A DNA stretch of 64,000 bases from Chloranthus sessilifolius (taxonomy: Eukaryota > Streptophyta > Magnoliopsida > Chloranthales > Chloranthaceae), in the NCBI GenBank assembly GCA_021018995.1, contig CM037585.1, positions 122,416,831 to 122,480,830 on the forward strand. The letters run 5' to 3'. This document shows, in pieces, positions 16,729-42,044 of this stretch; the stretch's first letter is position 1; the number at the start of each line of letters is the position of its first letter. A program made the translations under genes and the position numbers. Under the pieces are notes generated by a model. That model was given only the letters and a program-made list of their open reading frames with translations, did no database searches and was not told the origin of the DNA.

Positions 16729-16837
16729 TGTAGACATCCCCATTTTGCCCTCTCGGAGTACATAAGTTTGTTCGGTCAACCTTTGACCTTAACTGTGACT
16801 CTTCGAAAAGGACTTACCTTCTCCAAGGGTTTCGAAA

Positions 16838-17166: not shown

Positions 17167-17665
17167 CCAACCCAGACCCGAGACAATCTCAAATTATGCG
17201 CATTGAACAATGCGTGCAATTCGATTGGACGCCACACCACCAGCGCTCAATCAGTCCTGTTAGACCAAACTTCCCCTCTTTCAGACCGCCTCGAGACCCG
17301 ATTGCACGCTCCAACAAGCGCATGAAATCGGATTAAGCATCCCATCACCGACGCTCAATTGGTCTGTTTCATACCTGGTTTCTAAGTCCTAAGACCGCCA
17401 AAACTCCATGATTAAGCGCCATGCATGTAGCGCTTAATCGAATTGTGCATTCTAAACTAGGCACAGAATTAGTCTAATCAGACTAAGATTGGGACACCCC
17501 GGCTGAGCCAGTCAGCTGGTCACTCACTAAGTCGGTCACCGACTCAAAGTGGTTAAGCGCCTGATATAGGGCGCACAACTCAATTAAGAACCTCGGATAG
17601 AGAGCGTAATTTAAGTTAACTGACTAATTACACACACCCCACAGGGCGCGTAATTAGCAAAATAC

Positions 17666-19697: not shown

Positions 19698-21690
19698 GTG
19701 TGGGCTAGTTTAAGAGAAAAGTTACTCTGCAAACTACATCGGTAAATAATTTCGAGGGTTCTTAGCAAACCCCATTACCACCGAAGACCTCAACATACCA
19801 ATCAACTCCATAAGGTCAATCTTTTAAATGTCCACTCCCAAACACCTGTACCTCCACAGTGGGTAATAAACGAACCCTCAAAAGTAACTCTGGAGAAGAA
19901 GGAAAGGTGACCTCTGCAAATGCTGAAATTAATAATTTTTATATTTTTAAGAGTATAAGTTTTCAACATATTTAATTATAGGATATACATATAGGAAAGA
20001 TCGCAAAGAAGAATTGATACTAAATATACAACCAAGAGATCACCTCCAAAGGGTGCGCTGGAGGTGAATGGTCAATTAGCTAACATAAAGGTTCAAATAT
20101 ATATATGTTAAATTTAGTAGAATACTTGTTAATTTATATGTGTAGTCTATCCGCAGAAGGACTACAACCGTTTCCACTGGCCTATGAAACCACTAACGCA
20201 ATGATAAATATGATATAGATAAAGCTCTTAATGATGGCCCCGTGGAGTAGAATTTCTCCCCTTTGAAAGTTATTGAGTTATAGTTAATGTAATTTAATTC
20301 TTCTCTTAACAACCTATGTGGCTTTGCAGACGTGAGATTCATGTGACTGATAAACTGTCCATCACGGTGAAGAACTTGTTCTCAGTTTACGGTACTAATT
20401 GGTTTGACAGTGAGGAAAAGTCAACATTTTAAAAGGTACACATGCTTATATTCATAGAGTCGTTCGTCCGATATCCATAGGTCGTCTGGTGTGAGTCAGT
20501 TCGATGATTCTCTTTTTATGGAAAGTACAGATCTTTATTTCATGATATCCATTAGGGTGATATGTGACTTTGTTTTGTAGGCAATTGATGCATACTTTAT
20601 CTTGATGAAGAAACGAGAGAATGATCATAAAAAGAAACTTATAACAAGTCATTTCTTCTCAACTTATTTTATCTTAAGAGTCCAATTTTTCATTTTCACA
20701 TCTTATAATTTGTAATTATCTCTTAAACCTATTTCATATTTTGTTTAGACAAAATTGAAAGAATCGTTGGTGAAAGACGAAGCCGGTACGACCAAAAACT
20801 TTAACGTTTAGACTTCACCCCATGCACTAGGATATAAAATAAGCGAATGTGAGAAGGTAATTGAATAAATTTTAGTACTTCCTTTGTACATATACTATTG
20901 CTAGAGTTCGTCACTTGTCTCTTATAACATGGCTCCACTTAACAGGTTTGTCTTCCTGTCAATAGAGACTATCATTGGTCTTTATTCATATTATACATGA
21001 AGGAGAGGAAAGTTAAGTATTTAGACTCGTCTAGTGGGCAAAGTAACAGTGTATATTGTCTGGACATTGTAAACATATTGATACATATATCATTCAACTC
21101 TAGATCTTTATTGTTATATGTCTACTTAATAAATTTTGAGTGTTCTTAAATATAGAAAAATATTCTTTTTAAGATCCTAGCTCAACAAGGCGATGACAAT
21201 ATCGACGTCAGAGATTGACCGTTTACTAGATCACTTGCTATCCTGCATTAATCAAATTACTTTGATTATAGAGTTTTTATGATAAAGTATATTGACTACG
21301 CATCCCGTGGGCTTAGTTTCGATTTTGATCAATATCATATGTCATACTTGAGAGATAGGATTATGCTAGAGTTACTTAGAGGAGAAGCTAAACCTTAACA
21401 AATTTTGATATGAAATGATCCCGTCTTTTGTATCGTATACTACTTTTTTCTTACAACATCAAACAGGTAGTAGTTTATCAATATGTTCATTAATAATGAA
21501 ATGTAACTGAACTATGAATTCTTAAGACTTTATTTGAATTAAACTATTATTTAGCATTTCTAAGTTTATTCTTTTCTGTAAAGTGTTCTTCAATTAAATT
21601 ACACTTATACTGCAATTTATCATTATCATATTTATTCTATTGTATGTTCAATTTAGTTGCAATTGTATCTCAAATCTTTATACATAAGCT
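19698..21690. other. AT-rich interval with possible exon remnants, unassigned
   Basis: Short open stretches flanked by AG and GT are seen, for example around 20323-20431 (reading about RREIHVTDKLSITVKNLF) and 21290-21390 (ASRGLSFDFDQYHMSYLRD). They may be exons of the same decayed gene that ends in the GRF fingers, but I cannot name it. No repeats or RNA genes are seen. Confidence 0.3.
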
Positions 21691-22220
21691 GAAATGGACG
21701 TCTGTTTTGGTTGTCGAATGCGGGGACATTAGATTAAAGATTGCCCGCAAAAGAAGATCGTTGATGAAAAGGGTGCACCCCTATGTTACTGTAAAAACTA
21801 GCAGTGCTTAGTGTTTCAAACTCTGACAATAATCCCGACCATAAATATTATAAGTGTTACAATTGTGGGTTCTTCATATGGGAGGACGAATATTCAGGAT
21901 TGGTAAATCGGACTGTTGGGAACGATGAAATAGTTCACTTGGACGATGCTCGTCCTCTTTGCTACTGTCAAAAGCAATCAATGCTGCGAGTTTCAAACTC
22001 TCTCAAGAATCCCGAACATAAGTATTTTACATGTTATCAATGTCGATACTTTAGCTGGTTGGACGAACGTTCTTGAACTCCGGCGCTGGCGTCGAAGTTG
22101 GAAAACATCAAAAGGGACGATTTAAAAATAAAAGTAATGGTGGAGATTGAAGAGCTCGCCAAAAAATTTGAAGTGACTACGTCAATAAGCAGTAAAGGAA
22201 AAGGAAGCCTTCCTTGATTT
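21691..22220 (+). pseudogene. Broken exon with a CCHC zinc knuckle and two GRF zinc fingers
   Basis: After a likely AG acceptor the frame reads AEMDVCFGCRMRGH-stop-IKDCP, a CCHC knuckle (C-x2-C-x4-H-x4-C) interrupted by a TAG where Trp or similar is usual. Two GRF-type fingers follow: a C-Y-C start, then KYYKCYNCGFFIWEDE (copy 1, with a TAG and a one-base frameshift near 21800) and a C-Y-C start then KYFTCYQCRYFSWLDE (copy 2, intact, in the open frame 21804-22076). A Lys/Glu-rich helix follows to about 22218. GRF fingers bind single-stranded nucleic acid in topoisomerase III, APE2 and related proteins; plant TOP3A ends in this type of finger, but many plant GRF proteins are small and uncharacterised. 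The breaks show a pseudogene. Confidence 0.65.
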
Positions 22221-22599: not shown

Positions 22600-25500
22600 A
22601 CCTACTAGACTCACATGAGTCTCTATGGGACTTGTAAGAGTCCGTTAATGACTCATATGAGGCTTGTATTAGTTAAATTGCTTATTGGTACATCACTGTT
22701 ATCAGACAATAGCATGACTATTGGTGCGTCACTGTTATGGGACTATAACTTGACTGGCGTTATTGACTATCAGATTTGGATCCTACAGCTCTCACATGAG
22801 TCTTACTTGGAATCGTAAGAGTCAGCAAATGACTCATATAGGACCAAGTCATGCAAAATCTCTATTAGTACATTAATATTGGAAGTATTTAATATGACTG
22901 ATCTCATTATCTATCATATTTGGATCCTACAAGTCTCACATTAGCCAAAATTGGACTGATAAGAGTCAGTAAATGACTCATATCAGACCCGATCATAGAA
23001 AACGGTTATTGGTACATCACTGTTATCAGACTATAATTTGTCTAATGTCGTTGACTATCAGATTTGGAGCCTATAGGTCTGACATGAGTCTTACTTGGAA
23101 TCATAAGAGTCAGTAAATGACTCATATGAGATCAAGTCATGAAAAATCCATATTGGTATATCAATGTTGGCAGTGTTGAACATGATTGATCTTATTGTCT
23201 ATCATATTTAGATCCTACAGGTCTCATATTAGTCTAACTTGGACTTATAAGAGTCAATAAATGACTCATATCTGACCTGGTCATAGAAAATGATTATTGG
23301 TACATCATTGTTATCAGACTATAACTTATCTTACGTCGTTGACTATCAGATTTAGATCCTACAGGTCTGACATGAGTCTTACTTGGACTCATAAGAGTCA
23401 GTAAATTACTCATATGGGACCAAGTCATGAAAAATCTCTATTGGTACATCAATGTTGGTAGTGTTTAACATGACTGATCTCATTGTCTATCAGATGTGGA
23501 GTCTACAGGTCTGACATGTGTCTTACTTGGACTCATAAGAGTCAGTAAATGACTCATATGGGACCAAGTCATGAAAAATCCCTATTGGTTCATCAAAATT
23601 ATTATACTATAACTTGTTTAACATCGTTCACTATCAGATTTGAAACCTACAGGTCTGACATGAGTCATACTTGAACTCATAAGAGTCAGTAAATAACTCA
23701 TATGGAACCAAGTCATAAAAAATACCTATTGGTACATCACAGTTATCAGACTATAACTTGTCTATCGTCATTGACTATCATATTTTGAGCCTACAAGTTT
23801 GACATGAGTCTTACTTTGACTCAAAAGAGTCAGTAAATGACTCATATGGGATCAAGTCATGAAAAATCCCTATTGGTACATCACTGTTATCAGACTATAA
23901 ATTGTCTAACATCATTGACTATCAGATTTGGAGCCTACAAGTCTGACATGAGTCTTACTTGGACTCATAAGAGTCAGCAAATGACTCATATGCGACCAAG
24001 TCAGAAAAAATCCTTATTAGTACATTAATGTTGGCAGTATTTAATATGATTGATCTCATTGTCTATCATATTTTATTCCTACAGGTCTCACATTAGTCTA
24101 ACTTGGACTTATAAGAGTTAATAAAATACTCATATCAAACCCAGTCATAGAAAATAATTATCGGTACACTACAGGTCTGACATGAGTCTTACTTGGAATC
24201 ATAAGAGTCAGTAAATGACTCATATGGGACCAAGTCATGCGAAATCCCTATTGGTACATCCATGTAGACAGTTTTAACATTACTGATCTTATAGTCTATC
24301 ATATTTGGATCCTATAGGTCTCACATTAGTCTAACTTTGATTTATAAGAGTAAGTAAATGACTCATATCAGACCCGATCATAGAAAATGGTTATTCATAC
24401 ATCACTCTTATCAGACTATCACTTGTCTAACGTCGTTGACTATCAGATTTGGAGCCTACAGGTCTGACATGAGTCTTACTTGTACTCATAAGAATCAGTA
24501 AATGACTCATATGGGACCAAGTCATGAAAAATCCTTATTGGTACCTCACTGTTATCAGACTATAACTTGTCTAACGTCATTGATTATCAGATTTGGAGCC
24601 TACAGGTCTGGCATGAGTCTTACTTTGACTCATAAGAGTCAGTAAATGACTCATATGGGACCAAGTCATGAAAATTTTCTATTAGTACATCACTGTCATC
24701 AGACTATAACTTGTCCAAAGTCATTGACTATCAAATTTGAAGCCTACAGGTCTGACATGAGTCATATTTGGACTCATAAGAGTCAATAAATGACTCATAT
24801 GGGACCAGGTCATAAAAAATCCTTATTGGTACATTAATGTTGGCAGTGTTTAACATGATTAATCTCATTATCTATCATATTTGGATCCTACAAGTCTCAC
24901 ATTAGTCTAACTTAGACTTATAAGAGTCAGTAAATGACTCATATCTGACCTAGTCATGAAAAATGGTTATTGGTACTCTACAGGTCTGACATGAGCCTTA
25001 TTTGGAATCATAAGAGTCAATAAATGACTCATATGGGACCAAGTCATGTGAAATTCCTATTGGTACATCAATGTTGGCAGTGTTAACATGATTGATCTCA
25101 TTGTCTATCATAGTTGGATCCTACAGGTCTCACATTAGTTTAACTTAGACTTATAAGAGTCAGTAAATGATACATATCAGACCCGATCATCGAAAATGGT
25201 TATTGGTACATCACTATTATTAGACTATAACTTGTCTAACGTCGTTGACTATTAGATTTGGATCCTGTAGGTCTGACATGAGTCTTACTTGAACTCATAA
25301 GAGTCAGTAAATGACTCATATGGGATCAAGTCATGAAAAATCCCTATTGGTACATCACTATTATCATACTATAACTTGTTTAACATCATTGACTATTAGA
25401 TTTGGAGCCTACAGGTCTGGCATGAGTCTTACTTGAACTCATAAGAGTCAGTAAATGACTATATGAGACTAAGTCGTGAAAAATCCTTATTGATACATAA

Positions 25501-28500
25501 ATGTTGGCAGTGTTTAACATGATTGATCTCATGGTCTATCATATTTGGATCCTATAGGTCTCACATTAGTCTAACTTGGACTTATAAGAGTCAGTAAATG
25601 ACTCATATCAGACCCAGTCACGAAAAATAGTTATTGATATACTACAATTCTGACATGAGTCTTACTTGGAATCATAAGAGTCAGTAAATGACTAATATGA
25701 AACCAAGTTATGCGAAATTCTTATTGGTACATCAATGTTGGCAATATTGTACATGACTGATTTCATTGTCTATCATATTTGGATCTAACAGGTCTCACAT
25801 TAGTCTAACTTGGACTGATAAGAGTCAGTAAATGACTCATATCAGACCCAATCATGAAAAATAGTTATTGGTATATCACTATTATCAGACTATAACTTTT
25901 CTAGCGTCGTTGACTATTAGATTTTGAGCTTACAAGTCTGACATGAGTCTTACTTGGACTCATAAGAGTCAGTAAATAACTCATATGGGGCCAAGTCATG
26001 ATAAATCTCTATTGGTACATCATGGTTATCCGACTATAACTTATCTAACATTATTGACTATTAGATTTGAAGCCTATAGGTCTTGCATAAGTCTTACATG
26101 AACTCATAAGAGTCAGTAAATGACTCATATGACACCAAGTCATTAAAAATCCCAATTGGTACATCAATGTTGATAGTTTTTAACATGATTGATCTCATTG
26201 TCTATCATTTTTGGATTCTATAGTTCTCACATTAGTCTAACTTGGACTAATAAGAGTTAGTAAATGACCCATATCAGACTCAGTCACGGAAAATGATTAT
26301 TGGTACACTACGGGTCTGACATGAGTCTTACTTTGAATTATAAGAGTTCGTAAATAACTCATCTGGGACCAAGTCATACAAAATTCCTATTGGTACATTA
26401 ATGTTGGCAATGTTTAACATGACTGATCTCATTGTCTATCATATTTGGATCCTACAGGTCTCACATTAGTCTAACTTTGACTTATAAGAGTCAGTAAATG
26501 ATGACTTATATCAGACCTAGTCATGAAAAATGATTATTGGTATATCACTGTTATCAGACTATAACTCGTCTAACGTCATTGACTATCAAATTTGGATCCT
26601 ACAGGTTTGACATGAGTCTTACTAGGACTCATAAGAGTCTGTAAATGACTCATATGTGATCAAGTAATGAAAAATTCTTATTGGTACATCACTATTATCA
26701 GACGATAACTTGTCTAACGTCGTTGACTATCAGATTTGGAGCTACAGGTCTGACATGAGTCATACTTGGACTCATAAGAATCAGTAAATTACTCATATGA
26801 GACCAAGTCAAGAAAAATTCCTATTGGTACATCATTGTTATCAGACTATAACTTGTCTAATGTCGTTGACTAATCAGATTTGGAGCCCATGGGTCTGACA
26901 TGAGTCTTACTTGGACTCATAAGAGTCAGTAAATGACTCATGTGAGACTAAATTATGAAAAATCCTTAATGGCACATCAATGTTGGCAGTGTTTAACATG
27001 ATTGATCTGATTGTCTATCATATTTGGATCCTACAGGAATCACATTAGTCTAACTTGGACTTATAAGAGTCCGTAAATTACTCATATTAGACTCAGTCAC
27101 GGAAAATGGTTATTTGTACCCTAAAGGTTTGACATGAGTCTTACTTGGAATCATAAGAGTCAATAAATTACGCATATAGGACCAAGCCATGCGAAATCCC
27201 TATTGGTACATCAAGGTTGGCAGTGTTTAACATGACTAATTTCATTGTATATCATAATTGGATCCTACAGGTCTAATATTTGTCAAACTTGTACTTACAA
27301 GAGTTAGTAAATGACTCATATCAGACCCGACCATGAAAAATAGTTATTGGTAAATCACTATTATCAAACTATAACTTGGCTAACATTGTTGACTATTAGA
27401 TTTGGAGCCTACAGGTCTGACATTAGTCTTACTTGGACTCATAAGAGTCCGTAAATGACACATATGGGACCAAGTAATGAAAAATCTCTATTGGTACATC
27501 ACTGTTATCAGGCTATAACTTATCTAACGTCGTTGACTATCAGATTTGGAGCCTACAGGTCTTACATGAGTATTATTTGGACTCATAAGAGTCAGAAAAT
27601 GGCTCAAATGGGACCAAGTCATCAAAATTCTTTATTGGTACATCAATGTTGGCAATATTTAACATTACTAATCTCATTGTCTATCATATTTGGATCCTAC
27701 TGGTCTCTCATTAGTTTAACTTGGGCTTACGAGAGTCAGTAAATGACTTATATCAAACCCAGTAACGGAAAATGGTTATTGGCACACTGGTCTGACATAA
27801 GTCTTACTTTGAATCATAAGAGTCAGTAAATGACTCATATAGGACCAAGTCATGTGAAATCCCTATTGGTATATCAATGTTGATAGTATTTAACATGACT
27901 GATCTCATTATCTATCATATTTGGATCCTATAGATCTCACATTAGTCTAATTTGGACTTAAAAGAGTCAGTAAATGACTCATATCAGACCCGATCATGGA
28001 AAATGGCGATTGGTACATCACTGTTATCAGAGTAAAACTTGTCTAACGTCATTGACTATTAGATTTGGAGCCTACAAGTCTGACATAAGTCTTATTTGGA
28101 CTCATAAGAGTAAGTAAATGACTCATATGGGACCAAGTCATGAAAAATCTATATTGGTACATCGTTGTTATCAGACTATAACTTGTCTAACATCATTGAC
28201 TATTAGATTTGGAGCCTACATATCTGACATGAGTCTTACTTAGACTCATAAGAGTTAGTAAATGACTCATATGCGACCAAGTCAAGAAAAATCCCTATTG
28301 GTACATCAATGTTGGTAGTGTTTAACATGACTAATCTCATTGTCTATTATTTTTAGATCATACAGGCCTCATATTAGTCTAACTTGGACTTATAAGAGTC
28401 AGTAAATGACTCATATCAACCCAGTCATGGAAAATGATTATTAGTACACTACATGACTGACATGAGTCTTACTTGGAATCATAAGAGTCAGTAAATGACT

Positions 28501-29656
28501 CATATGGGACCAAGTCATGTGAAATCTCTATTGGTACATTAATGTTAGCAGTGTTTAACATGAATGATCTTATATTCTATAATGTTTGGATCCTACAGGT
28601 CTCACATTAGTCTAACTTGGACTTATAAGAGTCAGTAGATGACTCAAATCAAACTCGGTCATGGAAAATGGTTATTGGTAAATCATTGTTATCAGACTAA
28701 AACTTGTCTAACGTCGTTTGCTATCTGATTTAGAGCTTACAAGTCTGACATGAGTCTTACTTGGACTCATAAGAGTCAGTAAATTACTCATATGGGACCA
28801 TGTCATGAAAAATTCCTGTTGATACATCATTGTTATCAGACTATAACTTATCTAACGTCGTTGACTATCAGATTTGGAGCCTACAAGTCTGACATGAGTC
28901 TTACTTTGACTCATAAGAATTAGTAAATAACTCATATGAGACTAAGTCATGAAAAATCCCTATTGGTATCACTATTATCATACTACAACTTATCTAATGT
29001 TGTTGACTATCAGCTTTGGAGCCTACAGGTTTGACATGAGTCTTACTTGGACTTATAAGAGTCAGTAAATGACTCATTTTGAACCAAGTAATGAAAAATC
29101 CCTATTGGTATATCAATGTTGGCAGTGTTTAACATGACTGATCTCATTTTATATCATTTTTGGATCCTACTGGTCTCACATTAGTCTAACTTGGACTTAT
29201 AAGAGTCAGTAAATGACTCATATCAGACCTAGTCAAGGAAAATGATTATTGGTTCACTACAGGTTTGACATGAGTCTTACTTGGAATCATAAGAGTCAGT
29301 AAATTACTCATATGTGACCAAGTCATGCAAAATCTCTATCGGTACATTAATATTGGCAGTGTTTAACATGACTGATCTCATTATCTACCCGATCATGGAA
29401 AATGGTTATTAATAAACTATACGTCTGGCATGAATCTAACTTGGAATCATAAGAGTCAAAAAATGACTCATATGGGGTCAAGTAATGCGAAATCTCTATT
29501 GGTACATCAATGTTTGCGGTGTTTAATATGGCTGATCTTTTTGTCTATCATATTTATATCCTACAGGTCTAACATTAGTCTAACTTAGATTTATAAGAGT
29601 CAATGAATGACTCAAATCAAACTCGGTCTTGGAAAATTGTTATTGATACATCACTG
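22600..29656. repeat. 144-bp satellite array with higher-order structure
   Basis: About 49 monomers of 144 bp each carry the core GAGTCAGTAAATGACTCATA. Three monomer types can be told apart. V1 has TATCAGACTATAACTTGTC and TTTGGAGCCTAC. V2 has GTTGGCAGTGTTTAACATGA and TTTGGATCCTAC. V3 is a V1 shortened to about 91 bp by an internal deletion (GGTACACTACAGGTCTGACA). From 23983 onward the order is V2-V3-V2-V1-V1(-V1), giving units of about 666 or 811 bp. Unit starts are near 23983, 24792, 25458, 26122, 26935, 27601, 28264 and 29071. The left edge (22600-23983) is irregular, as array edges often are. Translated frames in it (23837-24028, 27455-27742) are repeat translations. Confidence 0.95.
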
Positions 29657-29828
29657 TCACTGAGAATATTCAATCCCTCATTTGTCACTGACAATATTCA
29701 ATCCCTGCAATGCAGAGCCAATATATCTAAGACATGAAAAATCCACTGAAATGACCTGCATGATCAAATTCGTTAATTAATAATGAGCCTACTAGACTGC
29801 ATTATCAATTTGATTAAAATATCTACAG
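29657..29828. other. Junction sequence between satellite and MITE
   Basis: The last monomer stops within TACATCACTGTCAC and is followed by two copies of a 27-bp stretch ending GAATATTCAATCCC / CAATATTCAATCCC. Nothing else is seen. Confidence 0.5.
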
Positions 29829-30037
29829 CAAGGATCAAAATTTTGGGTAAATTTTCGATTTTGGGCTTGACCAAAACCGAAAATTTGAACCGAAATTTCT
29901 ATCTAAATTTTGGCCAAAAATTTGAGTCCCATACAAATTTGGACCGAAATTTCGGTCCAAATTGTTGTTTTGGTGGGGACTGAAACCTATAATGTCGGCC
30001 GAAATTTTAGTCATTTCGGCTGAAATTTTGATCCTTG
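29829..30037. mobile_element. 209-bp hAT-like MITE with 8-bp target duplication
   Basis: The ends are CAAGGATCAAAATTTT and GAAATTTTGATCCTTG, inverted repeats of about 15 bases. Flanks are ATCTACAG (29821-29828) and ATCTGCAG (30038-30045), an 8-bp duplication with one change. The interior has nested palindromes such as GGACCGAAATTTCGGTCC. No coding capacity. An 8-bp duplication fits hAT-type transposition; the TIR start CAAGG is close to the hAT pattern CA.GG. Confidence 0.8.
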
Positions 30038-30339: not shown

Positions 30340-31610
30340 AGTCTAAAAATGACTCTGTGTCTCATCCATTTGAAGAATTTCTGGGCCACTTAGAATTGTT
30401 TACCTTTTTACTATTAATTTTTTGAAAATAGCACAACATGATTGACATGTTTGAGGCTGATTCATGAGAATATCTAACACACATTGCTTCCGGAAAGCAA
30501 GTCTCTCTTCCACTCCAAATTGGAACTAACCTTCTCTCCCGGCCATAATATTTTCGGTATATTTTAGCACGAATAATGCACAGTTCACCTATCCTCGAGC
30601 CTATTTTGGGAGGCCGTTAGTGAAGAATAGTGGCCACGGAAGAGCTTTCTCTAGCGCGTTGTCTGTCCATTCAAGTATAACAGCCGTGGGAGATGCAAAG
30701 CCTGAAATAAATCGAGTACAGAAACACAAAGTATATAACTTATAAATGAAAATTAAATTAATAGATTAAATGACCCACTTATTTTCTTACCAAGGCATGT
30801 GTGTGATGTTTTCACATGTCGAATATTGGCTTGGCCGATGGGTCTAGGAGATAAATTTCTTTCTCGTTGAGGTTGACACAGGCTAACGCATAATTAGAGC
30901 CAGTATTATTGTGCAACAGAATTACAACCTGTAAATGTAACATCTAAACCGTGATTAGTGAAGGGCCACTCATATTACAGAATACTAATTATATGAGTAG
31001 TGAATAATAAGACATTTTAAAATAAAAAATTACAATTACCATTCCACAATGGGCTGCCACATTTTTAAAATAGTGTTTGTTGAGGAATGGAAGGCAAAAA
31101 TGATGTAATCTTTCATCGCCCTCTCAAATCGCAATTTTTTGTCCCTCATCCTTAATTGCATTATATACAGAGTCATTATTTTGGGACTCCTCAAATTTTA
31201 GCACCTCCTCCTTCAGCAATTCCTGTATGAAGATGCACTCAATTAATGATTATCAGTCACAACTTATAGGATCCAAGGAAATGAGTGTGCGAGAGGAGTG
31301 CTCACCGCAAACATAACCGGTAGAAGGTACACAATATGCGAACTGTATTTGCGGTATAGGCCCATTATCATTGCGTTCAGCACGTCGTCTTCCACTTCAG
31401 TATTCGGCCTAAGACTCTTAATGAACTTAATAGTTATCTAGAGCTCTTCAACCTTAGACACCATCAATCTGTAAATTACACCTGCTATACAAATTATGAG
31501 TTGTTCATGTATGTGTAATTAGTAAATTAAATTTTAACTTGATTAAGTAAGATATATTACTTATCAGTTGCGTCCGAAAAATCCCAAAAGAAAGAGGCAA
31601 ACTCATTTCT
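30340..31610 (-). pseudogene. Ulp1-like C48 cysteine protease domain, several exons
   Basis: Minus-strand blocks match the Ulp1/SENP fold in order: TEVEDDVLNAMIMGLYRKY (about 31410-31350, ending in a GT donor), a weaker block with LHHFCLPFLNKHYFK (31130-31020), NYALACVNLNEKEIYLLD (about 30930-30870), and VNCALFVLKYTENIMAGR (about 30590-30535). The last two are the strands around the catalytic His-Asp and the Cys. The usual His-Trp is Asn-Tyr here and the Asp before the Cys is Asn, so the active site is altered, though Cys and the LLD Asp remain. A TAG and a TAA interrupt the blocks (near 31445 and 30604). Family members remove SUMO from proteins. ULP-like genes of this form are known in plant MULEs. 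Confidence 0.72.
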
Positions 31611-31899
31611 ACCTTCTACCGCCATAACTCCCATTTTCTTTGCATCATCACTTTTCCACCAAATATTGGCAGCCAATTGGGCCTCATCTAATGAGGCATA
31701 GTCTTCTGATAATATTTTTTCATTTTCCTGGTGATTACAGATGTTTTTCCTATCGTCTCCTTTACTTTTCCTTGCTTCTTCAGCCTAGTCCTTGGCCTTT
31801 CAGCTATCTAGGTAGTCATGTCAATCTATCGCTTAGGCTTTTTCTCCCTTACTGGACATTGTTCAGCAAGGCTGACCTCAGCTGGATGTGCCCTTTTCA

Positions 31900-32660
31900 T
31901 TGAAACCTATATTATACATACCCCATATTACTGAAGGGATAATAGGTGTTATAGATACATAAAAATATCAAGTAAAAGTAGATAGAGGACTACATGGGCA
32001 ACTATATTTAATTCAAAATAAATACCTACTCTCCTTCATCTATTCCCGTAGTTGTTTCTCCTCTCTCTTCTACTTCGACTGTCGCAGTATCAACTCCCTC
32101 TCCCACTCTCTCTTGGCCCTCTCCCTCTCTCTCACACTCTCCATTTCCTCCGCTCTCATCTCCCTCTCTCTCACACTCTAGTTCCTTTGCTCTCATCTTG
32201 CTCTTTACCCTCTCCACTCTCTCTTGGCCCTCTCCCTCTCTCACACTCTTTATTTCCTCCCCTCTCATCTCCCTCTCTGCCCTCTCCAATCTCGGAGCTC
32301 TCGCCTGTTTCTAATGCGGCCTTAAGCGTCTTAACTCATTCCAATAATAATAAATTTTGTTGTTTCAGAACTTTGATCGAGTGACCTTACTTCTCAACGA
32401 CGGTGAGAATGGCCGAATCGACCTCGCCTCAACTTCTAATGCATCAACTATACAAAGAAATCTAGTAATAACCTCAAATTCTCTAATACCGGTGCCAATC
32501 TTGGCTGCACCGTATACTCATCCACATCATTATCATCTTCTTCTTCTTCCTCTTCCTTATTATCTTCTCTCTTTCTACACATGTCATCTCCTTGTTCTAG
32601 TTACTCTCTTTTCCTTAGTATCTCTTTTGGGCTGCTCGATCTAGGAAGTTCAAGCCCCTT
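31900..32660 (-). pseudogene. Glu/Arg-rich linker of the Ulp1-like gene
   Basis: The minus frame 32289-32026 is a highly charged stretch with repeated EGEGQERV and EREGDES-type units; two longer DNA copies (near 32108 and 32219 on the + strand, TCTCTTGGCCCTCTCCCTCT) show it is an internal duplication. Charged low-complexity linkers between DUF1985 and the Ulp1 domain are common in this gene type. The plus-strand Ser/Leu/Pro frame 32052-32384 is its shadow. Confidence 0.5.
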
Positions 32661-32779
32661 AGGTGGCTCCATATTTTCAACCACAACATACAAACTTCTG
32701 AATAGTACATATTCTATATCCAGTAACTAATCTTGTTGATAGAATAGTACCTCAAACTTCTGAAATTTTCAAAAATAGA

Positions 32780-33540
32780 AGTTAGTGTCGGAGCGCGAAA
32801 TCTTCAGTGGCATATATTTCAAGAGCAGTGGCCACTCATTACATGCGTTATTCACTTTACCCGATGAAATTTGAGGAGCATGCTCGAATGCCCATATATG
32901 TAACAGAATAGTGCAGCCTAGCACACAATACATCTTACCACCAAAAGAATGTGCGGTTTCATGTATAGAATCGATTAACTAAGCGTAAACCACATCCCCC
33001 CAATTGTGGCCATTAAACATTCGAAGATCATTCGTGAGATCGATGTAGTCCCAATCGATCGTACGATGAATGTCGGAGAGTAGGAAGTTCGCTAACATGT
33101 ACAATTCTCGAGTCGGATGAAGTCAACATCGGCTAGGCTAGGTAATCGAAGGCTAATTCGATATGATCCCTGGTGACCGACTGCCCGGCTGCCACTTGCC
33201 CAAATAATCACTCTCTAAAAGAGGTTGCACCTTCAAGATCTACCGGCACTGAAGGTTCTGCCGATTTTGAAGGGGAGCTAACTTTCAAGCCCAAAATCTT
33301 ACTCACGTCTATCCGGACGAATGGAATAAAATACTCTCCAATGGAGAATGTCTCATGCTCTGAATCGAAGCCTCTAATAATGGCGTGCACAAGCTGGCCA
33401 GATTGGGTGAGGAATTCGCTAATTAACCATAAATATTTAAAACAACTTTGTTGAAGGAGGAGTTGTTTCTTGTCACTACTCAATTGACCGTACAATCGGC
33501 CTAATTTGTAATAGTTCATCACTCCTTTGATGACTTGTCA
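32780..33540 (-). pseudogene. DUF1985 domain, N-terminal part of the Ulp1-like gene
   Basis: The minus frame 33522-33208 reads CFKYLWLISEFLTQSGQLVH, then GFDSEHETFSIGEYFIPF and DVSKILGLKV, the start of DUF1985 (an N-terminal domain of plant Ulp1-like genes). A second block (33070-32790, after a frame change) reads FLLSDIHRTIDWDYIDLTND then NWGDVVYA, FGGKMYCVLGCTILLHIWAF and LKYMPLKI, the rest of the domain. One stop (TAG after VVYA) and a frame change show decay. The domain order DUF1985, charged linker, Ulp1 on one strand supports a single gene of about 3.2 kb. Confidence 0.72.
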
Positions 33541-33639
33541 GTCATCCTCATCGACTTTCCATTTTCCTTTCTTCAATCTTGTTGCCATTTTTATTTTAGT
33601 CTTGAAAAGCTAACTGAATATCTGAAATAAGAGGAGTGA

Positions 33640-35570
33640 AACATATTAGACGACTAATATGAGATCAATATAAGAAAATATAATACATTACATGATTGAT
33701 GTGAGAACATTAGAGGACTGATATCAGAGAATAAAGTACTGATTAAGACAGTAAAGGATTGATATCATACCATAAAGTACTGATCTGAGATAAGACAGGA
33801 CTGATATCATACTCATATTAACCTTTAAGCTACATTGTTAAAGGCATGAGTAAAGTTATATGAAATATTAAATGATTGATATCAGTCCTCTAATAGTCTG
33901 ATATTAGTCATTTAATGTTTCTGATATCAAACCACGCAGTCATTCAATATTATGATATCAAACCATTAGAGGACTGATATCAGACATTTAATATATTTCT
34001 GATATCAGACATTTAATGTTTCTAATATCATACCATTAAATGACTGATATCAAACTCATATTTAGCTTTAAACTACATTATCACAGGCATGACTAATTTT
34101 TTTTGAAATATTAAATAACTGATATCAGACCATAAAGTACTGATGTAAGATAAGACAAGACTGATATCAACCTCATATTTACCTTTAAGCTATATTGTCA
34201 CAGTCATGAGTAAAGCTATATGAAACATTAAATGACTGATATCAATCCTCTAATGGTCTGATATCAGTCATATAATGTTTTTGATATCAGACCATTAGAG
34301 GACTAATATAAGACCATTAGAGAATTGATATCAGACATTTAATATTTCTGATATCAGACCATTAGAGGACTGATATCAGCCAATAAAGTACTGATGTGAG
34401 ATAGTAAAGGATTGATATCAGACTCATATTTAGCTTTAAACTATATTATTACAGGCATGAATAATTTTATCTTGAAATATTAAATGACTGATATCAGACC
34501 ATAAAGTACTGATGTGAGATAAGACAGGACTGATATGAGACTCATATTAACCTTTAAGTTACATTTTCACAAGCATGAGTAAAGTTATATGAAACATTAA
34601 ATGACTGATATCAGTCCTCTAATGGTCTGATATCAGTCATTTAATGTTTTTGATATCAGACCATTAGAGGACCGATATCAAACATTTAATGTTTCTGATA
34701 TCAAACCATTAGATGACTGATATCAAACATTTAATGTTTCTGATATCAGACCATTAGAGGACTAATATAAGATAATAAAATACTGATGTGAGACAGTAAA
34801 AGACTGATATTAGACTCATATTTAGCTTCAAACTACATTGTCACATGCATGAATAATTTTATATGAACCATTAAATGACTGATATCAGACCATAAAGTAC
34901 TGATGTGAGATAAGACATGACTGATATCAGTCTCATATTTACCTTTAAGCTACATTGTCACAGGCATGAGTAAAGTTATATGAAATATTAAATGACTGAT
35001 ATCAGTCCTTAATGATCTGATATCAGTCATTTAATGTTTTTGATATCATACCATTAGAGGACTGATATTATACTCATATTTAGCTTCAAACTACATTGTC
35101 ACAAGCATGACTAATTTTATCTGAAACATCATTAAATGATTGATATCAAACCATAAAGTACTGATGTGAGACAAGACATGACTAATATCAGTCTCATATT
35201 TACCTTTAAGTTATATTGTCACAGGCATGAGTAAAGTTATCTGATTCTATAAAGGACTGATGTGAGAACATTAAAGTACTGATATCAGACAAGATAGAAC
35301 TGATGTTAGACTCATTTTCAGTATTAAACTATATTCTTACCTGTATGAGTAATTTGAATCTATAAAGTATTGATGTGAGAATATTAAAGGACTGATATAA
35401 GAAAATAAAGTACTGATATGAGACAGTACATGACTGATATTAGACTAATATTTAGCCTAAACTATATTGTGACCTACATGAGTAAGTTGAAGAACTATAA
35501 AGTACTGATGCGCAAACAATAAAGGACTGGTATCAGACAATAAAGTACTGATGTGAGACCACACAAAGAT
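33640..35570. repeat. Palindrome-rich tandem array built on CTGATATCAG
   Basis: Dozens of GATATC palindromes occur, many as the 10-bp palindrome CTGATATCAG, in phrases such as TTAAATGACTGATATCAGACC and CCATTAGAGGACTGATATCAG. A larger unit is marked by two alternating anchors. Anchor a is CTCATATTTACCTTTAAGC, near 33813, 34172, 34541, 34932 and 35193. Anchor b is CTCATATTTAGCTTTAAAC, near 34055, 34423, 34815 and 35073. The same anchor recurs every 260-390 bp. The unit also holds CAGGCATGAGTAAAGTTATATGAAACATT-type sequence. It lies between the Ulp1-like gene and the MULE transposase. Confidence 0.88.
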
Positions 35571-36372
35571 CCACATATATTACACATCAGAGAAAAAGAA
35601 CAGTGGATTATCTAATAATATAATAAAGTACAATGATCGTACAATGAGTAACACGAGACTCATAGAAGTTGTACATTATTCAACGATATACTTATTATAA
35701 TATTTTATATATTTCTCACCACTTTTCTCATTCAATACCCTACTTATTATAACAAGTTTGTCACTTAGAAATTTTTATAATTTTTTTATGCATTTTTTTG
35801 ACCGTGGTCCTTATCAAGTTCAATGATTGTGTCCCTCGTCAACTTCCCATTTGCCTTAGGCGTTTCATCATTCGTAATTTACTTTTAAGAGGACTTGAAT
35901 ATCTGAAACAAGATCTACCTTCAGACATATGAGTGAGTAAGAACAGGAAGAACTAATGACATTGTAAGAACTGGTATGAGACAATAAAGTATTGCTGTCA
36001 GACAATAAAGGACTTATTGAGAGTTAAAATAAAACTTTAAACTTCAGTTGTTCGCTGTATGAGTAAAATTCAAGAACTAAATATGATATTAAAGGATCGA
36101 TGCGAGACATATTAAGCAATTTACATGAGACATAAGAAAACCTATTACAAATATTATGGACTGATATAAGATGTAAACATTCCAGCGAATGACACATATA
36201 TTAGACATCGAAGATAAAGGAAACATAGTGAATCATCCATATAAATAATAAGGTATAATAGCTACTTATTATAATGTATTATACATTCTTCACCATTGTT
36301 AAGATTGAATACTCTACTTATTACAAGATATCTTAGGGATAGCAAAATTAATTATGTTGTTTTGCATTTTTT
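35571..36372. other. AT-rich spacer downstream of the MULE transposase
   Basis: Scattered degenerate remnants of the neighbouring array (ACTGATGTGAGA-like phrases) occur up to about 36190. Two short near-copies, TTTTTTTGACCGTGGTCCTT (35793) and TTTTTTTACTGTGGTCCTTG (36367), flank most of the spacer. No coding seen. Confidence 0.5.
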
Positions 36373-39355
36373 TTACTGTGGTCCTTGACAAGTTGAACGA
36401 TTGTGTCCCTCCTGCTTATAAGTCATACAATACATTCTCCGTTTCTTTTCAAGTACAAATTTTAACCTTTTTTTCTGTGGTCGACCTGGGGCGTTCCTAC
36501 AGTGAGGCGGGTGAACAACAAGGGTAACATGCTTGACTTGCCATTGAGATTCGTCTAAAGTCGGTTCGATTACCTTACTATATGTCTCACAATACTGCAC
36601 AGATATATATATCATTCCTCACAAAATATCGACGGATCTGCATTACTCCAACGAATGACAGCCACAGCATGGATACAAGGGAGGCCCAAAACGTCAAAAC
36701 AGCAATAAGAACAAGGCCTCTTATCTAAATGTACATTGCACTTAAATGTCGATGTTGACACCTCAAAAACATTAGGTGATGATGGTAGAACTTGACAAAA
36801 CCTAGCTGCTTCATTAACCTCTTCCAAGATATCGAATGTATATGGGGTTAAACCCTTTGACATCTTTTGACCTTTTATAGTTTTGTCATGAAAAAGTTGG
36901 GCAACTTTCTTCCTCATTGCTTCAATAAGGGCTATTATTGGTAGACCTCTAACATGAACTAGGATTTTGTTCAAGCACTCAGACATGTTTGTAGTCAGAA
37001 TATCATCCTTACAACCAGGGAAGAGCGCTCTAAACCACCTCCGTGGTTTACTCTGTCGAAGATATTTTGCCCCAGCGGGGCTCACACTCTCAAGTTTCGT
37101 CATTAGCTTATCATGTTCTTTTACGATATATGCTCAAGCAATAGGCCAGAGTTGACTCTACAAAGTCAGATTCCTAAACTTCTCCCTGAAGTTCTTGACA
37201 ATGTGAAAGAAGCAAAGCTATGAGTGTCGAAGAAACCTTTTCCAAGCATTTTTTATTTTATTATCAACTACAACAAAAGCAATGGGGAACAAATCATTGT
37301 TGTCATTGACAGCTATCGCAATTAACATCGGGCAGGGAAATTTATCTTTTGAGTGTGTTCCATCAATTGACATTATGGGCCTCAACGTTCTTCTATATCC
37401 ATCGATAGAGGGACTGAATGTCCAAAAAATCTATGGAATGAATCATCATACAAACATTGTAGTTTCTTGAAGGCATCGAGATCGGATCTACACAATTATG
37501 TAATATATGAAGGGAGATTAGCACAAGACGACTCTCAACCACCCCTAATGTTAGCCAACACTATCTCTTTCACCTTCCACGCTTTACAATAGCTTATTAT
37601 AACCCCCCAATTTATTTATATTTCAGAGATAATTTTGGCAAGCACATAATCAATAGCGTCCTTCAACATATTCGTTATTTTAGAAGTTACTCAATCACTT
37701 GAGGCTTGTCGATAACCTCCCTTTTTTTGCATAGCTATACTAAGTGGACCGTACTTGTGCTAAGGATTCATTGTCTTAATTATGAAAGAATTGCCATCGA
37801 CGTTGCCCCTACTCGCACGAATATGCCATGGACAAATATTGTCCGCACATCTAGCGGCAATAATCATCTTGGTTGTCTTTATTGGTTTCAATTGAAAATT
37901 CTGCAACACAACATTATTCTTCAAGGCAGTAAGATATTCATCTCGAGAAGAAAAAGCTTTTCCGACAGTCAAAGATGTATTTCTAATCCTATCAAATCTC
38001 GACTTTCTTACATAATTTTCTCCTTCTAAGTTATCATCTTCAATTTTGAAGTCTGCATCTTTTGATTTATTCCCAATAATTCATCCCTAGAATCTCACTC
38101 CAATTGAAAAACTCGTGTCGCTATCTAAGCCCGTATATTCAGTAATCTCATCGTCTCCTGATAGTTCCTCGATATTGTAATTCTGGTACTAACTGAATCG
38201 GAAACCCATGTCTTCGATGGCAGAGCACTCTCGTTCCTTCAATTAAAATAAATATATAATGTGTCACTCATACGTAAGATATACACTCTAATATTACATA
38301 TGATTATACGAAAACTCAATTTAGAGTCACCTCTGAGTTGGTGGAGAATTTTTTACTGAAGTTGAGTCTTCATCTACTTGCCCCTCTTCAACTACTTTCT
38401 CCTCTACACAAGTATCGGGGAGGAGATGTGGAAATAGACGTGAATGCTCAGAATTATAAAATTACAGATAAGTATCAACCAAAAGATGTAATTCTTCATT
38501 AATAAAGCTGCCCTTCCCTAAGGAAATGGGAGACCAACCCACCTAAAATTGGTATTTCGTTCACGCTTTTCTTCGACAACAAGGGGAAAAAAACTAAATT
38601 ATAAGCATTGCAAGAGGTTGAGTACTATGTGTATAAAAAAATAATTGCAAATCATATAAAAATTATGTAAAATACTCACTATCGTGGGTCAGATTAGCAC
38701 GATCGGTGACTTTGATGGGCTCTTGAATTAGGAAACATGTGGTCATGAGCAATTCTACGATCAAAAGCATACCAGTATATATCAGTCAACTTATTAACAA
38801 TTTATCAATTAATATTAAATAAAAGTACAAACATATAACTTCATCGACTTACCTAAATGCCTTTGTTTCCTCTCATTTCTTCACTGTGTCTAAGTACATG
38901 TTGTATCGTTCATTACATCCAACTCCTTTACTTCGCGAGCCGTCAGGTTTCTCACTACCAAATAAGTAACATAAAGCATGGAATGCTTGACTACCAAACA
39001 AATTTAATTGCATTTACTTCTAATCTACTAGCACATACCTCTCTAGCATTCCTGTCTCCAGACTTTCCTTTCTTTTATGCTCGTTCAACTTTTTTGATTC
39101 TGCGGTCTTTTCATAAATATATAGGACAATATGAGGACAGTCAATAGGGCATAGGGTCATCATGTCACGAAAGTCGGTCTCATTGTTTATGTCAAAAATA
39201 AAACTCCCTTTGGTAGTTGGGTATCTAAATCTAAACCTTAGATCTATCTGCTTCGATATTAAGTTACACAAGTCATACATCTTTTCCATAAATTCGTTAT
39301 ATATTGCATCTCGGCTTATCGGTTTCTGTTTACATTTTTCACCACTATACATCAT
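36373..39355 (-). pseudogene. Mutator-like (MULE) transposase
   Basis: Minus-strand blocks in order: an N-terminal segment (39355-39020, LRFRFRYPTTKGSFIFDIN to CPHIVLYIYE); an acidic linker (about 38240-38030); the MuDR N-terminal zinc/DNA-binding domain (LTVGKAFSSRDEYLTAL, CADNICPWHIRASRG, about 37990-37760); the catalytic core (PSIDGYRRTLRPIMSIDGTH, then VNDNNDLFPIAFVVVDNK, about 37440-37240) with two catalytic Asp visible; and the C-terminal part (37103-36612, MSECLNKILVHVRG, then a SWIM-type CSYCCFDVLGLPCIHAVAV). The tail (36615-36373) has PPHCRNAPGRPQKKR and a CCHC knuckle CMTYKQEGHNRSTC. The enzyme would cut and paste a MULE with 9-bp target duplications. Stops in the 37740-37450 stretch and near 37225 break the frame. 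Confidence 0.85.
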
Positions 39356-39359
39356 ATTA

Positions 39360-40500
39360 TTTCCTTAGACTTTCAATAGCCTATTATAGTGGCATACTAG
39401 TATAACTGTGTCAGTACTCATAATACACCTGCATGCAAAGCCTACATATATTAATATATGAGATATTAACCAACTCTATAAAGATTAAAATAGCCCATTA
39501 TAGTGGCATACTAGTATAATTGTATCAGTACCTATAATGCAACTACATGTAAAGCCTACATATATAAGGATTATCTAACTCGGATTGGTTGGAGAATATA
39601 ACCACGAATAATTAATTGGTGATCCTAATATTTTATTTCATACTTCTATGATGTATCTTATGTAAAAGCTAAATAAGAAAAGAAATAAATTCTTAAACCC
39701 TAATGTCTTAAAGAAGACCCTGATCATGTCTTAAAGAAGACACTGCCTAACGAAGGGACATCACAGTCTTATATACAAACTACTATACGTCTTATATACA
39801 TTAATTCAAGCTGTTATTTAAATAAAAAACTAAATATTAACAAAACATTAATTCAAACTATTATTTTAAAAAAAAAATTAAAAATTATAGGGTTATTTAT
39901 AAAAAAGTTAAATAGGGGTGGCATTTATACATAATGTTAAAGCATTGGGTATATGCTAAAAACTCATATATTTTTTTTTCCAACGGATCGGTTGTGATTA
40001 AATTTGAGACCTCAAGCTTACAATGGTTGAATTACCCAATACGGATTTTACACTAGAAAATATGACAAAATTAATGCCCCTATTTATACCGAGTAAGGGT
40101 AAAACCCTAGTTCATTCCCAACAAACCAAAATAATAACCCTAAATCCTAAATATTAGAATTTTATAAATGGAAATCAACTAAAATCATAACCCTAAACCT
40201 TAATTATGGGTTTCTCTGCAATATCAGGAGTCGAGGAGTGAAAAGGGGGACAGTTAAGATCACTAAAGCTACTTATAATACTCCAATTACGCCCTAAAAT
40301 GAGCATTGAAAAATAAACAAATATTTAATTAATGCAAACAAATTTTATACTAGTAATAAAAAAAAACACAAATAAATTACATATTGAGTGCAGATTATCG
40401 AAAGCATGAAATTTAAAAAAGAAAATACTATGGTATATAAGAGATCGAGAGCTCTATCTACACAAAAACTGGATTAGACATGAGATAATCTTTTTTTACC
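39360..40500. other. AT-rich interval upstream of the MULE transposase
   Basis: A duplicated stretch (ATAGTGGCATACTAGTATAA with GTATCAGTAC and CATGNAAAGCCTACATATAT) occurs at about 39383-39450 and 39493-39565. AAATAGGGGTGGCATTTATA (39909) and its partial inverse TGCCCCTATTTATACCGAG (40074) could be ends of a small element of about 190 bp, not proven. On the minus strand this is the promoter side of the transposase. Confidence 0.4.
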
Positions 40501-40548: not shown

Positions 40549-40631
40549 TATTCATCGTTTTTTAGTTTTAATTTTTTCAGGGTTTTTTTTGCCACTTTTT
40601 CTATTTTACTTCATCTGAAATTGAAGTAAAT

Positions 40632-41495
40632 GACTCTTATGTGACCCAGTCATGCATAATCCTCATGTGACAGTGACTCCAGTGAGTATAACATGAATCT
40701 CAGGTGATTGACAATCAAATTTGGAGCCTACAGGACTAACATGAGTCTTCATTAGGCTTATAAGAGCCAATATAAGACTCATATGGGACCCAGTCATGGA
40801 TAATCTCGATTTGCCAATGGCTGTTATTAGACTCTAACATGACTGATATCAGTGACTATCAGATTTGGAGCCTACTGAAGTCATGTGAGTCTTTCTTGAA
40901 CTTATAAGAATCAATAAATGACTCTTATGTGACCCACTCATGCATTATCCTCATTTGTACATGACTGGTGAGTATAACATGACTCTCATGTGATAGACAT
41001 AGGATTTGGAACCTACAAGACTCACATGAGTTTTCCCTGAACTTATAAGAGAAAATAAATGACTCATATGAGACTCAATCATGCATAATCCTGATTTGTC
41101 AGTAGTTGTTATCAGACTCTAACATGACTGACGTCAGTGATTATCAGATTTGAAGCCAACTGAACTCACATGAGTCTTCCTTGGACTTATAAGAGTCAAT
41201 AAAGGACTCTGATGTGACTCACTCATGTATTGTCCTCATTTGTACATGACTGGTGAGTATAACACGACTCTTATGTGAGAGACTATCAGATTTGGAGCCT
41301 ACAGGATACATGAGTCTTCTGTGGACTTATAAGAGCCAGTAAATGACTCATATGAGACCCAGTCATGTATAATCCTGATTTGTTAGTGGGTGTTATCAGA
41401 CTTTAACATGACTGATGTCATTGACTATCAGATTTAGAGCCTACAAGACTCACATGAGTCTTCCTTGGACTTATAAGAGCCAATAAATGACTCAT
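40632..41495. repeat. Second, diverged array of the 144-bp satellite family
   Basis: Six monomers start near 40632, 40776, 40920, 41061, 41205 and 41345 (spacing 140-144). Two types alternate: P (GACTCTTATGTGACCCAGTC, TGACTGGTGAGTATAAC) and Q (GACTCATATGAGACCCAGTC, TATCAGACTCTAACATGACT). The sequence is clearly related to the 22.6-29.7 kb array (GGACTTATAAGAGCCAATAAATGACTCATA, TATCAGATTTGGAGCCTAC) and in the same orientation, but it forms its own subfamily and has no V3-like short monomer. Confidence 0.92.
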
Positions 41496-42044
41496 AGAAG
41501 AAGATATGAGCAAGGATTAGGAGTTAATCTATAAAGGAAGAATTTTTTCTTTAGATTTGGCGGAGATCAGGATATGGGTTGAAACAGGCTAAGCTTTTTT
41601 ATCTTTTTTCCCACAGAAGATAGGATCTGAATTTGTACAGGATTGTCGAGCTAAAAAAAATTGTGCAAGATTGGTTCTTGATCTGCATAGGAGATGGAAT
41701 TCAAAGTTCAAACCATGAAAGAATAAATTTTATTTACTTCATAAATAAGATGATCATTATCTATGGTAGGAAAGATCTTCAATTTCTCTGTTTTTTATCT
41801 TGAGAGTTTGGGGTTTTCTTATATAAAAACATGCTCCACTACCATGTTAAAGTTTGTTAACTTGAATGTTACTTTATATAAAATGATGCATATACATAGC
41901 CTTGAAGGTATATATCAATAAAAATCCTTTGAAACGATAAACATCATAGAAAAACAGAGAAATTGAAACAATAAGGTATATATCACTAAATACACTTGGC
42001 TTTACCCAATAACACAAAAATCTGATTTGTTTCAATGCGTTGTT
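41496..42044. other. Spacer without recognised content
   Basis: AT-rich. A minus frame (42071-41874) has no similarity I recognise. CATAGAAAAACAGAGAAATTGAAAC (41946) is close to the inverse of TTCAATTTCTCTGTTTTTTATC (41778), a possible loose inverted pair about 165 bases apart. Confidence 0.4.

What the first reader, a model, noticed from the sequence alone, without database searches (positions are those of the whole stretch)
23983..29071. Satellite with three nested levels: 144 bp, 666/811 bp, about 2.14 kb
Monomer types follow V2-V3-V2-V1-V1 (666 bp) or V2-V3-V2-V1-V1-V1 (811 bp). Successive unit lengths are about 809, 666, 664, 813, 666, 663 and 807, so one long unit followed by two short ones repeats as a block of about 2140 bp (23983-26122, 26122-28264). 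Higher-order repeats are known in human alpha satellite but less often described in plant satellites, and a third level with a deleted monomer as a marker is unusual. It implies recent amplification in 2.1-kb steps.
Basis: seen in the sequence. Interest (0 to 1): 0.75.

Follow-up and report, generated by a model that had tools for sequence, protein, structure and literature searches.

The report
Old nested repeats beside transposon genes
A 7-kb plant tandem repeat really is built in two nested levels, but the proposed third level and recent origin are not supported, and the array most likely belongs to the non-coding part of an old, silenced Mutator-type transposon rather than to a centromere.

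Summary
Observation: real. A head-to-tail 144-bp array fills 22.6-29.66 kb, and 24079-29166 is a higher-order repeat. A truncated 88-90-bp monomer marks 8 places, spaced 809, 664, 666, 813, 666, 663 and 807 bp. Each unit reads t-A1-B-(C)n-A2, n = 2 (long) or 1 (short), in the order LSSLSSL.

Third level: not supported. Units three apart are no more alike (86.5%) than units one (86.2%) or two (85.6%) apart. Changes shared by two units fit a star (32 seen, 33.1 simulated). The order of lengths, 1 of 35 arrangements, and two sites shared by the long units are all that remain.

Recency: not supported. Monomers lie about 7.7% from class consensus, with C>T graded CG > CHG > CHH as in long-methylated plant DNA.

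Identity: this and two further arrays (33.6-36.2, 40.6-41.5 kb) hold all 27 GACTSATATSAG of the window (0.03 expected), around remains of a Mutator transposase and Ulp1/GRF-like genes. My reading: expanded non-coding repeats of a VANDAL-like Mutator element. No element ends were found, genome copy number could not be measured, and protein binding is inferred.

The parts
22603..24078 (+). Flanking 144-bp monomers without the truncated marker (nine of full length from 22783, order A B A B A C C C A); not in the higher-order register
   Evidence: nhmmer decomposition and clustering
24079..24887 (+). Higher-order unit 1, long (809 bp): t-A1-B-C-C-A2
24888..25551 (+). Unit 2, short (664 bp): t-A1-B-C-A2
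25552..26217 (+). Unit 3, short (666 bp)
26218..27030 (+). Unit 4, long (813 bp)
27031..27696 (+). Unit 5, short (666 bp)
27697..28359 (+). Unit 6, short (663 bp)
28360..29166 (+). Unit 7, long (807 bp)
29167..29660 (+). Eighth, incomplete unit: t, A1, a short B remnant, A1-like and a cut-off B
33620..36200 (.). Second tandem array with other periods (about 22, 117, 369, 392 bp; TRF rows cover 33707-35559, the rest by motif and by eye), rich in GACTGATATCAG on both strands
40624..41498 (+). Third array: divergent 144-bp monomers in a two-monomer (285-bp) repeat, same strand, 65-74% identical to the main array in alignments of 300 bp or more; holds two GACTCATATGAG and one GACTGATATCAG
36376..39364 (-). 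Broken Mutator (MULE) transposase: MuDR DNA-binding domain and MULE catalytic domain above cut-off; PB1-like start and SWIM below cut-off
   Evidence: Pfam; two relatives at 24-25% identity with MULE, MuDR and SWIM domains
30365..33560 (-). Broken gene, tentatively of the PMD/DUF1985 type with an Ulp1-like tail
   Evidence: Weak Pfam matches below cut-off for the PMD/DUF1985 part, none for the tail; no homologue found; the Ulp1-like tail is judged by eye
20943..22073 (+). Broken gene with an Ulp1 (C48)-like stretch and two GRF zinc ribbons
   Evidence: GRF E 5e-10, two stretches; C48 E 0.0043, below cut-off

Best explanation
The array is an expanded block of non-coding tandem repeats belonging to an old, decayed Mutator-type (VANDAL-like) transposon. 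A founder stretch of five or six monomers, one of them a B monomer cut to 90 bp, was amplified in one burst into about eight units, with the C monomer present once or twice (local nesting). The copies then decayed independently under dense cytosine methylation. By analogy with VANDAL elements, the repeated motif GACTSATATSAG would have been a clustered binding site for an element-encoded protein, so that more repeats meant stronger binding. Shown: the repeat anatomy, the shared truncation, the nearly star-like divergence, the C>T gradient, the motif confined to three arrays, and the neighbouring transposase. Inferred: that the three arrays and the genes were one element, that methylation caused the C>T load, and that the motif bound a protein.
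For: Eight truncated monomers share one junction to within 3 bp and set the unit. Unit differences fit a star closely: 32 changes shared by two units against 33.1 simulated, 181 private against 191. C>T is 22 of 96 at CG, 59 of 407 at CHG and 133 of 1498 at CHH, against 0.016-0.020 per site for T>C and A>G. All 27 GACTSATATSAG in the 64-kb window lie in the three arrays (9, 15, 3), 0.03 expected; the right array has a form of each of the other two kinds of array. GACTSAT runs at 11.4-12.8 per kb in the arrays and 0.2-0.5 per kb in the five other regions counted. All five tested 144-bp monomers share more 7- and 8-letter words with the middle array than shuffles do (10 of 10 tests, P 0.005-0.045), against 2 of 50 tests below 0.05 for five control regions. 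Mutator transposase domains lie between the arrays. In VANDAL21, motif-bearing tandem repeats lie in introns and upstream of the transposase gene and are bound by VANC (passages of PMC5735166; PMC10398659).
Against: No ends or target-site duplication were found: 5 of 6 end searches were no better than shuffles, and one, with an 8-bp duplication, was borderline (best 13 of 18, P 0.05 in 60 shuffles). So a single element of about 22 kb is not shown, and it would be large for a VANDAL (size recalled). The Ulp1 and DUF1985-type matches are below Pfam's cut-offs, and a search with the joined minus-strand gene found nothing. The motif is not clearly better preserved than the rest of the monomer (8-13% of circular shifts do as well for the strict list, 22-45% for the 10-letter core, 2-8% for a broad list chosen afterwards). 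Changes shared by three units slightly exceed the star (12 against 7.1, P 0.05). Self-BLAST at 1e-5 found no alignment between the main and middle arrays. Motif copies inside an array are duplicates, not independent sites, and the motif was chosen after looking.
Confidence: 0.55

Rival explanations
1. An ordinary dispersed satellite array that merely lies next to, or was split by, an unrelated Mutator insertion between 29.66 and 40.62 kb.
For: 144-bp arrays of the same strand lie on both sides of that stretch; no element ends were found that enclose the arrays.
Against: The monomer register does not continue: the left array stops at consensus position 100 and the right one starts at 41. The two arrays are 65-74% alike in alignments of 300 bp or more, and the right one has its own 285-bp period. 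The middle array, inside the supposed insertion, carries the same 12-letter motif.
Confidence: 0.24
2. A three-level satellite recently amplified in 2.14-kb steps.
For: The order LSSLSSL has strict period 3 (1 of 35 arrangements). Two derived sites are shared by exactly the three long units (simulated P 0.0125 for this triple, 35 triples possible).
Against: Same-phase units are not more alike (permutation P 0.12-0.25). Of 32 changes shared by two units, 8 are in phase, simulated 7.65. Units differ by about 13%, so nothing is recent.
Confidence: 0.1
3. A centromeric satellite under CENH3.
For: Nucleosome-scale monomer and higher-order structure, both known from plant centromeres (general knowledge; passages of PMC10053651 on Arabidopsis).
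Against: The array is only about 7 kb, diverged, and set between coding remains of transposons. Abundance could not be measured.
Confidence: 0.04
4. An assembly artefact in the number or order of units.
For: Tandem arrays are prone to it; no reads were available.
Against: Units carry many private differences (181 over 515 sites in seven units), so reads could be placed; no N in the window.
Confidence: 0.05

Closest known systems
VANDAL elements of Arabidopsis (non-TIR Mutator-like) with VANC target repeats, and the Ulp1-bearing Kaonashi (KIU) group
   Same: Mutator transposase; non-coding tandem repeats built on a short motif; possible Ulp1/DUF1985-type genes nearby
   Different: The motif differs (GACTSATATSAG here; YAGTATTAY, and AGTTGTCC or AGTTGTAC, in PMC5735166, passages read); the array here has higher-order structure; no VANC protein, element ends or close protein relative shown
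Local-nested higher-order repeats, such as human D17Z1 with one monomer repeated n times (PMC10053651, passages read)
   Same: A unit in which one monomer is repeated a variable number of times
   Different: Here n is 1 or 2, the unit also holds a truncated monomer, and there are only seven full units
Tetris transposon and TIR-220 repeats of Drosophila virilis (PMC4079207, passages read)
   Same: Tandem repeats inside an element that its authors place in the Mutator superfamily, expanding into satellite-like arrays
   Different: Tetris is a foldback element with the repeats in long inverted ends; no such ends were found here
Ogre-derived satellites of Lathyrus sativus (PMC7004042, passages read)
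   Same: Transposon-borne tandem repeats as seeds of satellites in a plant
   Different: There an LTR retrotransposon, here apparently a Mutator element; genomic abundance unknown here

Membership tests
Higher-order repeat | Ordered set of distinct monomers repeated as a unit | tested here: met
   Seven full units of the same order t-A1-B-(C)n-A2 with a shared truncation
Higher-order repeat | Same-slot monomers more alike across units than different monomers within a unit | tested here: inconclusive
   Clustering separates A, B plus t, and C across units, units 83-89% alike; but A1 does not separate from A2, nor t from B, by clustering: they differ in consensus and length
Third-level (2.14-kb) repeat | Units three apart more alike than other pairs | tested here: not met
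VANDAL-like Mutator element | Mutator transposase | tested here: met
   MULE E 6e-8, MuDR DNA-binding E 4e-9; which Mutator clade was not tested
VANDAL-like Mutator element | No long terminal inverted repeats; target-site duplication at both ends | tested here: inconclusive
   No ends found; 5 of 6 searches at shuffle level, one borderline; no long inverted repeats enclosing the region at BLAST E 1e-5
VANDAL-like Mutator element | Further gene with DUF1985 and, in the KIU group, Ulp1 | tested here: inconclusive
   C48 E 0.0043, PMD 0.0039, DUF1985 0.03, all below cut-off; no homologue
VANDAL-like Mutator element | Tandem repeats with a short shared motif in non-coding parts | tested here: met
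   27 of 27 motif copies in three arrays; motif chosen after looking
VANDAL-like Mutator element | Element protein binds the motif and removes methylation | not testable with these tools
   Needs expression and a binding assay
Satellite DNA | High copy number in long arrays | not tested
   The genome search did not complete
Centromeric satellite | CENH3 occupancy | not testable with these tools
   Needs ChIP

The most novel reading that the evidence does not exclude
A VANDAL-type anti-silencing system in an early-branching angiosperm, whose target repeats grew to 7 kb with higher-order structure. The forms of one palindrome-like motif in three arrays of one element (GACTCATATGAG, GACTCATATCAG, GACTGATATCAG) would record a shift of binding specificity, and the higher-order repeat would be the fossil of a burst of target-site amplification.
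Probability: 0.15. Interest if true: 0.65.

Novelty: new variant of a known kind. Interest (0 to 1): 0.36.

Why it matters
If the arrays are a transposon's own target repeats, higher-order structure of the kind usually discussed for centromeres can arise in one burst inside a single DNA transposon, with no centromere. The graded C>T load would also be a record of how such repeats are silenced. As a three-level satellite, the finding is not supported.

Tried and rejected
Third level tested four ways: unit identity by distance with exact permutation, counts of shared changes, simulation of a star and gapped block alignment. Only a weak sign was left: two sites shared by exactly the three long units, one G>A in t and one T>C in B.

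Extra C monomer as a recent duplicate: rejected. The two C monomers within a long unit are 87.3-89.5% alike, inside the 82.5-92.4% range among C monomers.

Motif under selection: first counts looked significant (Fisher P 0.0008 and 0.036, with a broad motif list chosen after seeing the monomer). With circular shifts the strict list gave 0.08-0.13, the 10-letter core 0.22-0.45 and the broad list 0.02-0.08, so I do not claim it.

Element ends: searches for 8-10-bp duplications with matching ends between 16.5-22.65 or 29.6-33.5 kb and 40.4-44.5 kb, against 60 shuffles: 5 of 6 at chance, one (8 bp, long element) P 0.05.

RNA families: none at gathering threshold. The array pattern gave no match in the viral and prokaryote collections, which hold no plants. 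The third protein search, with the joined minus-strand gene, found nothing.

Literature: seven searches. In the titles and abstract openings listed (20 of 133, 20 of 69, 4 of 4, 3 of 3, 12 of 33, 15 of 28, 10 of 22 papers) I saw no Mutator-borne plant array with higher-order structure. Most subscription papers are not held, so this is no proof of absence. I read only passages of PMC5735166, PMC10398659, PMC13317346, PMC7004042, PMC10053651, PMC4079207 and PMC9659126.

Full report
WHAT IS THERE. Tandem Repeats Finder and a monomer profile agree on a head-to-tail array of 144-bp monomers from about 22.6 to 29.66 kb, plus strand. I cut it into 51 pieces for alignment, leaving out the fragments before 22783 and 16 bases at 29401-29416. 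Clustering gives three classes (A; B with the truncated ones; C). From 24079 the order is strict: t, A1, B, C, (C), A2. A1 and A2 are told apart by consensus and position, not by clustering. The class t is a B monomer that stops at position 90 and runs straight into the next A1. It occurs 8 times (24079, 24888, 25552, 26218, 27031, 27697, 28360, 29167), 88-90 bp long; the junction is the same to within 3 bp, the copy at 27697 having lost a little more. This shared break is the best single evidence that the units descend from one founder. Upstream (22783-24078) nine monomers are full length and not in this order. The unit is a pentamer or hexamer in which C is present once or twice, the form called a local-nested higher-order repeat in human centromere work (passages of PMC10053651).

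THE THIRD LEVEL. Seven complete units have lengths L S S L S S L. If three long and four short units were placed at random, this strictly period-3 order would be 1 of 35, and it was noted after being seen. The stronger prediction is that units three apart should be more alike. They are not. Over t, A1, B, one C and A2, mean identity at unit distances 1 to 6 is 0.862, 0.856, 0.865, 0.861, 0.868 and 0.867; exact permutation over 5040 orders gives P 0.12 (0.25 without C). With gaps allowed, the two complete 2.14-kb blocks are 86.8% identical, and the 21 pairs of single units lie between 85.0 and 90.4%. At 515 gap-free sites, 181 changes are private to one unit, 32 are shared by two and 12 by three; 8 of the 32 pairs are in phase, 7.6 expected. 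A star simulation (400 runs) with rates by sequence context gives 191, 33.1 and 7.1. Triples are thus a little in excess (P 0.05), and two of the 12 unite exactly the long units 1, 4 and 7 (P 0.0125 for that triple, among 35 possible). I read this as a hint that long units may share ancestry, not as evidence for blocks. A block amplification at the time of the burst itself cannot be excluded, because units were then nearly identical.

AGE. Monomers differ from their class consensus by 7.7% on average. C>T and G>A run at 0.10-0.11 per site, A>G and T>C at 0.016-0.020. By context, C>T is 22 of 96 (0.23) at CG, 59 of 407 (0.145) at CHG and 133 of 1498 (0.089) at CHH, both strands counted. That is the usual order of methylation in plants (general knowledge) and suggests long, dense methylation in all contexts. 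At A and T sites divergence is about 0.04 per copy; with plant rates of a few per billion per year (recalled) this points to some millions to tens of millions of years. The amplification looks like a burst, but an old one.

SURROUNDINGS. On the minus strand, 39.36-36.38 kb holds a broken Mutator transposase (MULE E 6e-8, MuDR DNA-binding E 4e-9; SWIM 0.016 and PB1 0.02, below cut-off). A search with joined pieces of it found 2 proteins among 3365 candidates, 24-25% identical, from Cinnamomum and Davidia, both with MULE, MuDR and SWIM domains. A plus-strand broken gene at 20.9-22.07 kb has two GRF zinc ribbons (E 5e-10) and an Ulp1-like stretch (E 0.0043, below cut-off). A minus-strand broken gene at 30.4-33.6 kb gives weak PMD and DUF1985 matches, and a search with it found nothing; its Ulp1-like tail is my judgement by eye. 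Of ten other open frames across the window, five match LTR-retrotransposon domains. The RNase H protein at 3709-4680 has 246 relatives, 120 of them listed; its best named matches are Tasmannia (49% identity) and Persea (56%), with Magnolia further down and many other angiosperms in the list. The plant is thus probably an early-branching angiosperm, but it was not identified.

THREE ARRAYS, ONE MOTIF. A second array (33.6-36.2 kb) has other periods. A third (40.62-41.50 kb) consists of divergent 144-bp monomers in a 285-bp dimer, 65-74% identical to the main array in alignments of 300 bp or more. The 12-letter pattern GACTSATATSAG, which I chose after looking at the arrays, occurs 27 times in the window: 9 in the main array (7 GACTCATATCAG, 2 GACTCATATGAG), 15 in the middle one (14 GACTGATATCAG, 1 GACTGATATGAG) and 3 in the right one (2 GACTCATATGAG, 1 GACTGATATCAG), and nowhere else; 0.03 are expected in shuffles. 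Copies within an array are duplicates, so the number alone overstates the case. The telling points are that arrays of different period share it, and that the right array holds both the form of the main array's edge and the form typical of the middle array. A check by word sharing gave P 0.005-0.045 for all five monomers against the middle array at both word lengths (10 of 10 tests); against five control regions 2 of 50 tests were below 0.05, both of them one right-array monomer against the plus-strand Ulp1/GRF region. Against this, BLAST at 1e-5 aligned the main array with the right one but not with the middle one, so the kinship of the middle array is at the level of the motif.

EXPLANATION. 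In Arabidopsis VANDAL elements, VANC proteins bind short motifs that are multiplied as tandem repeats in introns and upstream of the transposase gene, and these repeats gain and lose copies quickly (passages of PMC5735166). Non-coding regions of these elements are also targets of RNA-directed methylation (passages of PMC10398659), and some VANDALs carry an Ulp1 domain in the VANC gene (passages of PMC13317346). The layout here fits: Mutator transposase, possible Ulp1/DUF1985-type genes, repeats on a shared motif between the genes and upstream of the transposase, and a methylation-type decay. It is an analogy in function and a candidate for membership, not a demonstrated member, because ends, a target-site duplication and a VANC protein were not found. 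Tests for stronger preservation of the motif were not convincing. The main rival, a satellite split by a Mutator insertion, is weakened because the monomer register does not continue across the gap (position 100 to position 41), because the outer arrays differ so much, and because the middle array carries the motif.

CHANGES ON CHECKING. I lowered confidence in the best explanation from 0.58 to 0.55 and raised the split-satellite rival from 0.22 to 0.24, because I had not weighed that BLAST does not join the middle array to the main one.

VERDICT. The nested repeat is real at two levels. The third level and recency are not supported. Most likely it is an old transposon-borne array, a new variant of a known kind. 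Copy number in the genome, which would decide much, could not be measured because the genome search did not answer in eight attempts.

Noticed in passing
33620-36200: A dense array of palindromic GACTGATATCAG copies in both orientations, with periods of about 22, 117, 369 and 392 bp.
   Followed up: partly
40624-41498: Second, divergent 144-bp array with a two-monomer (285-bp) higher-order period.
   Followed up: partly
54960-55507 and 62037-62584: Direct repeat of about 549 bp at 89.6% identity, 7 kb apart, with a reverse transcriptase fragment between (60027-60485); possibly the two LTRs of one element.
   Followed up: no
53679-54963 and 57517-58818: A 1.3-kb direct duplication at 84% identity, each copy holding 29- to 33-bp tandem repeats.
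   Followed up: no
16837-17168: Four copies of an 80-bp tandem repeat in what looks by eye like the LTR of the left retrotransposon.
   Followed up: no
29870-30029: A self-complementary stretch just beyond the right edge of the main array.
   Followed up: no
22783-29400: C>T load graded CG > CHG > CHH in the monomers, a possible fossil record of methylation.
   Followed up: yes
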